A stretch of 64,000 nucleotides of DNA from the NCBI GenBank assembly GCA_019828545.1, contig JACVRA010000139.1:1-64000 (forward strand), read 5' to 3'. This DNA is from Paracamarosporium sp. OC-R06-R3 (taxonomy: Eukaryota; Ascomycota; Dothideomycetes; Pleosporales; Didymosphaeriaceae). The first letter of the stretch is position 1. The number at the start of each line of letters is the position of its first letter. Below, in pieces: positions 43,909 through 47,981 of the stretch. The position numbers and the translations under genes are program-made. The notes below the pieces were generated by a model, which was not told the DNA's origin, ran no database searches, and saw nothing but the letters and a program-made list of their open reading frames with translations.

Positions 43909-44498
43909 CTAGTCTTCCTCTTCGACGGCATAAGTGCCAACAGATTTGATGCTAGGCTTGACGTGAATTGGGGGAAGATCACGCTTCTCCTCAGCATCGA
44001 CAGCATAGGTACCGACAGATTTGATGCTAGGCTTGACGTGAATTGGTGGGAGATCACGCTTCTCCTCAACATCGACGGCATAGGTGCCCACAGACTTGAT
44101 GCTGGGCCTGACATGAATAGGAGGGAGGTCGCGCTTCTCCTCGGAGTCAACGGCATAGGTGCCGACGGACTTAATGCTAGGCCTGACGTGAATCGGGGGG
44201 AGGTCGCGTTTCTCGGCTTCCTCGCTGTCGATAGCATAGGTTCCCACAGACTTAATGCTAGGCCTGACGTGGATCGGGGGAAGGTCGCGCTTCTGCTCGG
44301 CTTCAACGGCATAGGTGCCGACAGACTTAATGCTAGGCCTGACATGAATAGGAGGGAGGTCGCGTTTCTCCTCAGCGGCTGTACAAACTCAATCACCCGG
44401 TAATGGAAGAGACGGGAAGCTAACTTACCACCAATAGGGGCGGCAACAGCGGTGCTCAAAACTACAGCTCCGGCCAGGATCTGTACAAAGGCCTTCAT
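43909..44498 (-). CDS. Secreted Kex2-processed repeat precursor, candidate dikaritin-type RiPP precursor, 179 aa
   Basis: Exons in transcript order are 44498-44429 and 44378-43909, with a 50-nt GTAAGT intron. Residues 1-20 form a signal peptide, followed by a short leader that ends Lys28-Arg29. Then come six tandem units starting at residues 30, 55, 82, 107, 132 and 157. Each opens with the same 18-residue block, DLPPIHV(R/K)PSIKSVGTYA, closes with a variable acidic spacer, and all but the last end in Lys-Arg, the Kex2 protease site. The first four units have Arg at block position 8 and the last two have Lys. Each block has a single Tyr, followed by Ala-Val or Ala-Ile. This layout (signal peptide, acidic spacers, KR-bounded identical cores with a Tyr) is that of ustiloxin/phomopsin-class precursors and of KEP proteins. 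A UstYa-family gene starts 1.3 kb away, divergently. An unmodified secreted peptide or pheromone-like signal is the alternative. Confidence 0.88.
43919..44370. repeat. six-copy coding tandem repeat, 75-81 bp units
   Basis: The repeat array forms exon 2 of the precursor gene. Units are 75 bp, except the second, which is 81 bp because of two extra spacer codons, and the incomplete last unit. Copies differ mainly at third codon positions within the core and at amino-acid level only in spacers and one R/K position. Because unit lengths are multiples of three, all six frames repeat, giving spurious long ORFs on both strands. Confidence 0.9.
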
Positions 44499-45794
44499 AG
44501 TGACTGTCGAGGTGGAGAATGAAGCAACGAGAATTCTGATGAGTGTGCTGATTGTGATGGAGAGAAGGTTGACGGTGCAGATACGAGGTCCCTTTTATCT
44601 TCCTTGCGTCCAGAAGAGTGGAATCTCGACCACGTTTGCCGATCTGATTACTGCCCTAAAGGATTCAGGGTCGTACGCTGGTGGATACGGATAGTTATCT
44701 CGCATAGTTCTCTGGTCTAGCATCCTACCTAGAATCCTTTGGCATGCATTACTGCACGAATTAGGACGATAGCCTCAAGACCGTCTTGTAGCCAGTGAAT
44801 AAGACTTAACCAGGAGAAGCAGGTCAAGAGTCCATTCATATCTTTCTAGGCTGTTGCCCTGCGTCGCACATCAATCAGTTGACCAAACTTTGGTAATGAG
44901 TCTATCAAATTACTGGCCCCGCTACAAGACCCGATGATATGCGAGCAAATCTTATCCATGATTGTTCCTCTAGTAGATGGATTTGTAGCACTATTTGATC
45001 TGTTCTAGGAAAATGGTAAAGCTGGCTGTTGACCGTATAGAAGAAGTGCAGCGGTAGTTTTGCTACAAGATGTACCGCTCGAGTATTTGTGTCGGGATAT
45101 CCCTAGAGGAATGTCCAGCTTCGATCTGTTGCAATTTGTGTTTGCAGTTCAACACCCAGGCCGTATATCCACGTGTAGAGGTAGGCCGTGGCACGAAGCT
45201 TGTCGAAGCTTTAGTTAAGCATACGCTAGTCCACAAAGAGATTAGTCTACCATCGAGGCGTACCCATTCGCACCCTTTGGAAGCCACCTAGAATCTCGTT
45301 CACCCAACTAATGACGTATGGATCTTCCCGACGTTAACCATGCCAAGAAAACAGTAACATTAATCTCACGTCCAATTGCTCAATTCTGAATACGCGTGTT
45401 GTTATCGTGCTCTAGGGCGTCATAACTACCTGCTGTTTACGGCGTAGATGTATAGTCTGGACATACTACGGTAGCTATCAGGGATCTGAATGTAGAGAAT
45501 GGTGTCAGCATATGCCCCACACTTGTGACCCGCCAGCGCACCCGAGTTATCGTCTCAGGCGATACATCAAAATGAGTTGTGAAGGATTCCGAACTTGCGA
45601 ATAGGCTCGGTGACATCAAGAAATTCGACCGAAATCAAACTTTTTGGAATAGTTTGTGCTTGCACTGCCCCTTGTAAGAAAAAACTAGTTAGCTAAAAAC
45701 ATTGTGCGAGAGCTGTCTGTTGGCAACATCCCGTCATTGACCAGTTTCTCTCGTCTTTTCCTTTCTTTTGGCTACCTTTGGAGAACTGCATGAG
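44499..45794. promoter_or_regulatory. divergent spacer between peptide precursor and UstYa-like oxidase
   Basis: This 1.3-kb spacer separates the start codons of the two divergent genes and must contain both promoters. I found no third coding region in it. No specific transcription-factor site is claimed. Confidence 0.6.
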
Positions 45795-46823
45795 ATGGAC
45801 ATCAAAACATGGATCCGAGGCTTCATAGACTCGTCCGTGAGAAGAACAGTCTACTCCAAAGTCGACGATGACGAGAAGTCTCCGGAATCAACAGAGACAC
45901 TGTTAGGTTCAACGCAACCACCGGCCCTAGCCCGCTCTTCCTACATCCTCCCCATCGCAAACGTCACCTTGTTTTTATTCTCCATCGTCCTCGTCATCAT
46001 CACGTATACACGCCCAGTGACAGACGCGCAATGTGTCAAGCAACTCTACACATGGTGTAAGTCTCCCCACACAAAACTGCTCAGCCGAACCATCGCTCAA
46101 CAACAATAAGCACCGGCTTTCGAAGCCATCGAGTACCATGAAGAAGACTATGGAGGGGCCTTCCGACAGCAGACTGAGTTCCGCGGGATACCCACACCGG
46201 AGCTTGACGAACGATGGTTAAAGCTCTGGGACTGTAAGCCTACCGAATTCCAAACGTCTCAATTACCCAAAGCTAAAGTCGGTCAAGACCACGAGTTCGA
46301 CGTGCCAGAGTCCAAATGGGCCCTCCTGAACCACACCAACGATCCAGACATCGTGCGAACGTCCAAAGGCGGCGGTGCCGCGCTGATGTGGGGAATGCAC
46401 CAGCTCCATTGCCTTGTACGTATCCTCGGCATGGCCCTCCGCAATTCGAAGCGACAGTTAAACTGACCAACATGATTAGGACTGGCTGCGCATGTGGTCA
46501 TACAAAGACCACTACATGACGACCTACGGCGCATTGCCCGGGCACTTCCAAGGTCTATCGGACAAAATGGTTCGCACGCATTTGGACCACTGCATCGATG
46601 TGCTGAGGCAGGATATGATGTGCCACATGGATGTTACGCCGTATTTTATCGTGTAAGTCCATCTGACGTTCCATCATGCCAAGTGTCTTATACTAATCCT
46701 GCGGTTTGTAGGTATGATGAGTCGGGGCCCGAAGGCGAGACGTTTGACTTCTCGCCGCATCAGAAATGCCGTAACTTTGACAAGATCCGGCAGTGGAACA
46801 TTGACAACCTTGCTTTGGATTGA
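45795..46823 (+). CDS. UstYa-family (DUF3328) oxidase, 268 aa
   Basis: Exons are 45795-46056, 46111-46233, 46279-46415, 46480-46652 and 46712-46823. The third acceptor could lie 6 nt upstream, adding two codons. The ATG at 45795 is the first in frame. A single transmembrane segment spans about residues 51-71, with an acidic cytosolic head, so the catalytic part is lumenal. SPAFEAIEYHEEDYGG and GIPTPELDERWLKLWD are the family's opening blocks. Both signature motifs are present: H169-QL-H172-C173 and H208-LD-H211-C212, the second followed by IDVLRQDMMCHMDVTP. In ustiloxin, phomopsin and related pathways UstYa-type proteins carry out oxidative cyclisation or other oxidation of a Kex2-type precursor peptide. 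The divergent repeat precursor 1.3 kb away is the obvious candidate substrate; that link is inference. Confidence 0.92.

Positions 46824-47927: not shown

Positions 47928-47981
<54 letters not shown>
47928..47981. repeat. (AC)n microsatellite, about 27 units
   Basis: This is an uninterrupted dinucleotide run of about 54 bp, flanked by unique sequence. It is likely length-polymorphic. Confidence 0.97.

What the first reader, a model, noticed from the sequence alone, without database searches (positions are those of the whole stretch)
43909..46823. Minimal dikaritin-type cluster: precursor divergent from a UstYa-family oxidase
A UstYa (DUF3328) protein with both HxxHC motifs starts 1.3 kb from the precursor in divergent orientation, with no other gene between. 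UstYa proteins are the defining tailoring enzymes of ustiloxin/phomopsin-type pathways. I see no tyrosinase, methyltransferase, transporter or regulator adjacent, so this could be a two-gene pathway or one whose other enzymes are unlinked.
Basis: partly seen in the sequence, partly recalled or inferred. Interest (0 to 1): 0.92.

Follow-up and report, generated by a model that had tools for sequence, protein, structure and literature searches.

The report
Repeat peptide gene beside crosslinking oxidase
A fungal gene for a secreted protein made of six near-identical peptide units sits head-to-head with a gene for an oxidase of the kind that ties such peptides into rings; this is probably a two-gene peptide pathway of a known sort, and the same genome appears to hold eight more pairs of this design with different peptides.

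Summary
The minus-strand gene 43909-44498 (one intron) encodes 179 aa: a signal peptide and six Kex2-bounded repeats of DLPPIHV[R/K]PSIKSVGTYA[V/I]. The plus-strand gene 45795-46823 (four exons) encodes a 283-aa UstYa/DUF3328 protein (PF11807, E 1.9e-44) with HQLHC and HLDHC. They are divergent, 1,296 bp apart, no credible gene between. Between repeats, 120 synonymous but 13 nonsynonymous pairwise differences (pS 0.55, pN 0.02) show that the peptide is selected. Nearest neighbours look like housekeeping genes; no tyrosinase or S41 peptidase match lies on the 149.6-kb contig. The layout is not unique: in this 43-Mb genome I found nine repeat-precursor loci near UstYa genes, all nine with a UstYa gene head-to-head (one weak), with unrelated repeats. 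Kex2-repeat precursors near DUF3328 genes are known (1,758 of 7,878 in one survey), and asperipin-2a uses a single such enzyme. Best reading: a compact RiPP pathway in which the membrane copper oxidase modifies, probably crosslinks through Tyr17, each repeat before Kex2 releases it. Chemistry, product and co-expression are untested; no other fungal genome was searchable. New member of a known kind.

The parts
43909..44498 (-). Precursor gene (KEP type): 179 aa, hydrophobic leader MKAFVQILAGAVVLSTAVAA, six repeats of DLPPIHV[R/K]PSIKSVGTYA[V/I] bounded by KR
   Evidence: Exon joining; tandem repeat; single copy in the genome
44379..44428 (-). 50-nt phase-1 intron directly after the signal-peptide exon
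   Evidence: GTAAGT...GTACAG. An alternative 41-nt intron ending GAG would add VCT; judged less likely
43922..44376 (-). Array of six units of about 75 bp (the second unit has a spacer two codons longer)
   Evidence: unit-by-unit comparison
44499..45794 (.). 1,296-bp divergent intergenic region, presumed shared promoter region
   Evidence: No ATG-initiated frame over 73 codons inside; the promoter role is inference
45795..46823 (+). UstYa/DUF3328 gene: exons 45795-46056, 46111-46415, 46480-46652, 46712-46823; 283 aa; one N-terminal membrane stretch; HQLHC and HLDHC
   Evidence: (PF11807 E 1.9e-44). A 39-nt intron at 46234-46272 is possible (270 aa, E 2.7e-44) but not needed

Best explanation
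A compact RiPP (ribosomally made, post-translationally modified peptide) pathway of the asperipin kind. The precursor enters the secretory pathway through its signal peptide (inferred from sequence). The UstYa protein, anchored by its N-terminal helix with the HxxHC...HxxHC domain in the lumen, oxidises each repeat as a copper- and oxygen-dependent dimer; this is shown in print for the family members CctR, ApnU and AprY, and inferred here. The likely site is the invariant Tyr17, perhaps an ether or C-C link to the beta-branched residue two positions on (Tyr-Ala-[Val/Ile]); this step is speculative. A Kex2-type protease (one P_proprotein match in the genome) then cuts after each KR, and the acidic tail may be trimmed. 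Six copies of one secreted, probably cyclic peptide of about 19-23 residues, or a smaller ring after trimming, result. The head-to-head layout would let one promoter region drive substrate and enzyme together (inference).
For: Hydrophobic leader and six KR-bounded repeats; strong purifying selection on the 19-residue unit: pS 0.552 and pN 0.020 over 15 copy pairs, 17 of 19 residues invariant; the two variable sites are R/K and V/I, the latter keeping a beta-branched residue at Tyr+2. UstYa with both motifs and a membrane stretch. Nine of nine repeat-precursor loci found in this genome have a UstYa gene in head-to-head orientation; the window and seven others with 0.9-1.8 kb between genes or matched parts, the ninth weak at 3.7 kb. 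Published survey: the count of DUF3328 genes is highest at the position next to KEP genes; 65.6% of DUF3328-linked repeats contain Tyr against 38.2% of unlinked ones (PMC7329392, section 7 read). DUF3328 proteins are copper enzymes and AprY is a cyclase with copper and oxygen dependence (PMC12435403, passages). One P_proprotein match.
Against: No product, expression or enzyme assay. Ustiloxin and phomopsin cyclisation also needs a tyrosinase, and none is on this contig. The conserved unit (19 aa) is longer than the short cores of ustiloxin and asperipin (core lengths recalled). UstYa-family proteins also hydroxylate or halogenate, so crosslinking is not a given. The window's UstYa does not group with the other precursor-linked ones, which are scattered over the tree; its nearest paralogue (48 of 121 columns identical, C148) has no repeat precursor in the 16.5 kb fetched around it. 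Distances near 1.3 kb are partly set by the 1.5-kb flanks of most loci.
Confidence: 0.68

Rival explanations
1. The precursor is processed to unmodified linear peptides (signal, antimicrobial or effector type), and the UstYa gene next door serves another pathway or is a relic.
For: 6,120 of 7,878 KEP genes in the survey have no DUF3328 gene within 15 genes (PMC7329392). The conserved 19-residue unit is long for a dikaritin core. The window's UstYa has no close precursor-linked paralogue.
Against: About 0.003 UstYa genes expected this close by chance; nine of nine precursor loci found share the head-to-head layout, though precursors far from UstYa genes could not be looked for; invariant Tyr; the UstYa frame and motifs are intact.
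Confidence: 0.17
2. The pair is one part of a larger pathway whose further enzymes (tyrosinase, methyltransferase, peptidase, transporter, second UstYa) are unlinked elsewhere in the genome, as the first reader suggested as an alternative.
For: The genome has 39 exon-level tyrosinase matches and about 50 UstYa genes; other loci here are richer: C200 and C23 carry UstYa genes on both sides of the precursor, and C23 has tyrosinase-like matches 1-2 kb beyond the nearer UstYa gene.
Against: 0 of 39 tyrosinase and 0 of 6 S41 matches are on C33; asperipin-2a has a single UstYa-type gene. These speak against linked enzymes, not directly against unlinked ones.
Confidence: 0.12
3. The precursor is a mating pheromone (alpha-factor type).
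For: Signal peptide plus Kex2-bounded repeats is also the pheromone design.
Against: No pheromone profile among the four Pfam matches of the precursor, all of which look spurious; almost all pheromone KEPs (three exceptions) lack a DUF3328 neighbour (PMC7329392 abstract).
Confidence: 0.03

Closest known systems
Asperipin-2a pathway (single UstYa-family enzyme AprY)
   Same: Kex2-repeat precursor and one UstYa-type gene, no tyrosinase
   Different: The asperipin cluster also has a reductase (passage) and, recalled, a transporter; none is adjacent here. The repeat is unrelated and longer here
Ustiloxin / phomopsin dikaritin clusters
   Same: Signal peptide, repeats with a conserved Tyr; here Tyr-Ala-[Val/Ile], reminiscent of the conserved EDYXI core (PMC6339444 section 10)
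   Different: Those have two and five DUF3328 genes and a tyrosinase, plus other tailoring genes (partly recalled); only one UstYa gene and no tyrosinase on this contig
KEPs with nearby DUF3328 genes (1,758 of 7,878 KEPs, PMC7329392)
   Same: This gene pairing; the count of DUF3328 genes is highest at the next gene position
   Different: Nothing structural. Five short stretches of this repeat gave 0 papers in the main texts of the library; supplements were not searched, so the sequence may be listed there
Venturia inaequalis dikaritin clusters (nine)
   Same: Several precursor-DUF3328 loci in one genome (PMC9632046, passages)
   Different: Not known to be the same species; orientation is not described in the passages seen

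Membership tests
Kex2-processed repeat protein (KEP) | Signal peptide followed by near-identical repeats bounded by dibasic Kex2 sites | tested here: met
   Six repeats, each preceded by KR, and a hydrophobic leader
UstYa / DUF3328 family | PF11807 domain above cut-off and two HxxHC motifs | tested here: met
   152.6 bits against 25; motifs at 184 and 223
Dikaritin (DUF3328 enzyme as class-defining; Montalban-Lopez 2021 as quoted in PMC12048977) | Repeat precursor with a DUF3328 gene in proximity | tested here: met
   Divergent neighbours, 1,296 bp
Dikaritin (five-gene definition; Ding 2015 as quoted in PMC12048977) | Tyrosinase, methyltransferase, several DUF3328 genes, transporter or peptidase in the cluster | tested here: not met
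   0 of 39 tyrosinase and 0 of 6 S41 matches on C33; one UstYa gene on the contig; none of these families among the 25 neighbouring frames scanned. Methyltransferases and transporters were checked only in those frames
Dikaritin | Tyr in the repeated core | tested here: met
   Tyr17 in six of six copies
Dikaritin | Oxidatively crosslinked peptide product | not testable with these tools
   Needs mass spectrometry or NMR
Fungal mating pheromone | Pheromone profile in the precursor | tested here: not met
   No pheromone family among the Pfam matches at E up to 0.01

The most novel reading that the evidence does not exclude
A two-gene RiPP system in which one UstYa enzyme, without tyrosinase, makes an ustiloxin-like Tyr-Ala-[Val/Ile] ring inside a much longer (19-residue) conserved peptide; and, across this genome, a standard head-to-head 'substrate plus oxidase' cassette has been multiplied about nine times with the leader design kept (signal peptide and, in four, a predicted phase-1 intron right after it) and the repeat unit replaced.
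Probability: 0.25. Interest if true: 0.62.

Novelty: new member of a known kind. Interest (0 to 1): 0.42.

Why it matters
The pair is a clean case for asking whether a single UstYa-family enzyme is enough to finish a fungal peptide: one substrate gene, one enzyme gene, no other tailoring gene found adjacent. The nine head-to-head loci in one genome give a ready comparison set: unrelated repeat units, each with its own UstYa gene, in one cellular background, for learning what the enzymes recognise and whether shared promoters keep substrate and enzyme together.

Tried and rejected
Mating pheromone and chance neighbourhood were considered and rejected. Pfam matches of the precursor to Ribosomal_L9_C, DUF2849, Rax2_3 and PRE_C2HC (the first two above their cut-offs) have no single stretch passing the threshold and appear to sum over the repeats; treated as artefacts. 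A precursor-specific UstYa clade was looked for and not found: 44 of 55 fragments had enough columns and 11 were dropped, among them the C284 enzyme, the divergent C23 enzyme and the farther C111 enzyme; exon ends were joined roughly and many nodes are weak, so only the scatter of precursor-linked members is used. The P450 gene at about 32.4-33.9 kb was considered as a partner and set aside: it lies about 10 kb away behind DUF3455, a TPR gene and the aminotransferase-IV gene.

A solved structure of a relative was sought by sequence: none at E up to 1. Viral contigs: no match for the UstYa protein. Literature: five stretches of the window repeat and six stretches of other precursors in this genome gave 0 papers. 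A search combining UstYa/DUF3328/KEP with terms for divergent layout was badly aimed (7,641 papers, 10 listed, none on point among the titles) and shows little. Structure prediction was not run, because the spliced protein is not a letter-for-letter frame of the window. The MFS search scored only 9 of 788 candidates and is not used.

So enrichment of precursors near UstYa genes in this genome was not measured: the only background is the window's own 64 kb. Precursors far from any UstYa gene could not be looked for.

Detector rows dropped before counting nine loci: shadow frames of the same DNA (L001, L020, window; L031 and L032 are copies of the window) and L040 (irregular EQSR words, no repeat unit). 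The C284 case is counted but weak: its UstYa match is below Pfam's cut-off and 3.7 kb away. All 75 UstYa matches were inside fetched DNA, but flanks differ: for most loci cut about 1.0-1.5 kb on the shorter side (C88 only 188 bases), for the others about 1.6-5 kb. Nine is therefore a lower bound, and distances above about 1.5 kb are under-counted.

Full report
WHAT IS THERE. The window lies in a fungal assembly of 43.09 Mb in 337 contigs (contig C33, 149,553 bases). On the minus strand, 44498-43909, one gene with a 50-nt intron encodes 179 residues: a hydrophobic leader ending AVAA, then six copies of DLPPIHV[R/K]PSIKSVGTYA[V/I], each preceded by KR and followed by an acidic spacer; the last copy ends EEED. 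It is single-copy in the genome. On the plus strand, 45795-46823, a four-exon gene encodes 283 residues with the UstYa domain (PF11807, E 1.9e-44), a single hydrophobic stretch near the N-terminus, and the motifs HQLHC and HLDHC. The two start codons face away from each other with 1,296 bp between. The longest ATG-initiated frame wholly in the gap is 73 codons.

THE REPEAT IS UNDER SELECTION AS A PEPTIDE. Across the six copies, third codon positions differ freely while residues hardly change: over all 15 copy pairs, 120 synonymous differences on 217.5 synonymous sites (pS 0.552) and 13 nonsynonymous on 637.5 sites (pN 0.020); 17 of 19 residues are invariant, the exceptions being R/K at position 8 and V/I at position 19. 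The pairs are not independent, but the contrast is large. The copies have drifted in DNA while the peptide has been held constant. The spacers between copies vary in residues and, once, in length.

SURROUNDINGS. To the left, tail to tail with the precursor and 65 bp from its stop, lies an aminotransferase class IV gene (PF01063; reads like 4-amino-4-deoxychorismate lyase, recalled), then a TPR protein gene (reads like Tom70, recalled), DUF3455, a P450, a PRELI-family gene and a class-I tRNA synthetase; to the right, beyond the UstYa gene, lies an OPY2-like gene. Pfam was run on 25 window frames besides the pair itself (5, 10 each), not on every frame listed. No tyrosinase (0 of 39 exon-level matches) and no S41 peptidase (0 of 6) is on C33. 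The only UstYa matches on C33 are the two that belong to this gene. So 'minimal' stands for the neighbourhood, with methyltransferases, transporters and regulators checked only in the frames scanned.

THE SAME LAYOUT RECURS. One search gives 75 exon-level UstYa matches, about 50 genes (54 groups when matches within 600 bp are merged; 55 groups with my own profile). All 75 lie in DNA that I fetched, with flanks from about 1 to 5 kb, one shorter. I looked there for repeated frames with dibasic sites. Besides the window, eight loci carry one: C200 (QWYDLTYID), C260 at 145 kb (TNFEIDTILDVNRNPDKSSYA), C260 at 246 kb (NWYSDSASGV), C302 (QYHGKNVVK), C42 (DSDDIWLW), C111 (DVAYNNLAENPSQIES...), C23 (DDVDFDQIGDEY) and C284 (DVDSSWDGKAE). 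In all nine, a UstYa gene stands head-to-head with the precursor. In the window and seven others the distance is 0.9-1.8 kb (matched parts; ATG to ATG in the window); in C284 it is 3.7 kb, to a UstYa match below the Pfam cut-off. C200 and C23 have a second UstYa gene on the other side, and C111 a second, more distant one on the same side; C23 also has tyrosinase-like matches at 96.0-96.7 kb. Flanks were roughly symmetrical for most loci, so the search itself does not favour divergence; it does limit the distances that could be seen. If a neighbouring pair is divergent one time in four, nine of nine has probability 4 in a million, or 6 in 100,000 for the seven loci without UstYa on both sides; independence of the loci is assumed. 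Four precursors (C33, C302, C111, C260 at 246 kb) give their longest product with a phase-1 intron directly after the signal-peptide exon; for C260 at 145 kb, C23 and C284 the script found no such model within its limits, C200 reads through without an intron, and C42 was only translated. C302 and C111 share the exon-1 ending AAPV and C33 has AAPIG. That hints at a common leader design with exchanged repeats; it is an inference from predicted introns.

HOW IT PROBABLY WORKS. Shown elsewhere: the DUF3328 protein CctR is a membrane-associated, dimeric, binuclear copper enzyme that uses the HxxHC...HxxHC motif, oxygen and electrons; AprY is a copper- and oxygen-dependent cyclase (PMC12435403, abstract and passages). 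Shown elsewhere: 1,758 of 7,878 KEPs have a DUF3328 gene within 15 genes, most often at the next position, and Tyr is commoner in those repeats (PMC7329392, passages and section 7). Inferred here: entry of the precursor into the secretory pathway, oxidation of each repeat by the neighbouring UstYa protein in the lumen, release by a Kex2-type protease (one P_proprotein match), secretion. Speculative: the site. The unit contains one Tyr, in Tyr-Ala-[Val/Ile]; ustiloxins and phomopsins carry a conserved EDYXI core, and from memory the ustiloxin ether joins the Tyr ring to the beta-carbon of the Ile two residues on. That the only variation at this position is Val/Ile, both beta-branched, fits such a link but does not show it; ustiloxin and phomopsin need a tyrosinase for cyclisation and none is here.

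WHAT SPEAKS AGAINST. No expression, product or relative's genome could be examined. The UstYa tree shows no clade of precursor-linked enzymes; the window's nearest paralogue, on C148 (48 of 121 columns identical), has no repeat precursor in the pieces fetched, 23.5-40.0 kb of that contig. The 19-residue conserved unit is long, so a linear, unmodified peptide remains possible. Enrichment of precursors near UstYa genes was not measured in this genome, because the control loci could not be cut out.

VERDICT. The recurrent head-to-head layout is the more interesting point. I saw no description of it in the passages I read, but the one text search aimed at it was too broad to show absence, and most subscription papers and all supplements were out of reach.

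Noticed in passing
G000:C23:92413-96666 (L046): A precursor repeat frame between two UstYa genes, with tyrosinase-like matches 1-2 kb beyond the nearer one: a fuller dikaritin-like locus than the window's.
   Followed up: partly
G000:C200:18523-22100 (L001, L020): A six-repeat precursor (QWYDLTYID) between two UstYa genes, one divergent and one tandem; a P450 match lies at 26.7-28.1 kb of the same contig.
   Followed up: partly
G000:C148:23500-40000 (L054, L008, L056, L041): Several UstYa-type frames on one small contig, including the nearest paralogue of the window's enzyme, and no repeat precursor in the pieces fetched; a frame that reads like kinesin lies at about 31.6-32.4 kb.
   Followed up: partly
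window 45790-45828: A 12-codon ATG frame (ATGAGATGG...TAG) overlaps the UstYa start codon out of frame; a possible upstream ORF that could damp translation.
   Followed up: no
window about 47928-47981: Long CA dinucleotide run in a low-complexity stretch between the UstYa gene and the OPY2-like gene.
   Followed up: no
L057 (G000:C260:142700-144750), minus strand: A 453-aa open stretch that reads like a thiamine-diphosphate enzyme (recalled) lies about 0.7 kb from the TNFEIDTILDV precursor frame; possibly an ordinary neighbour.
   Followed up: no
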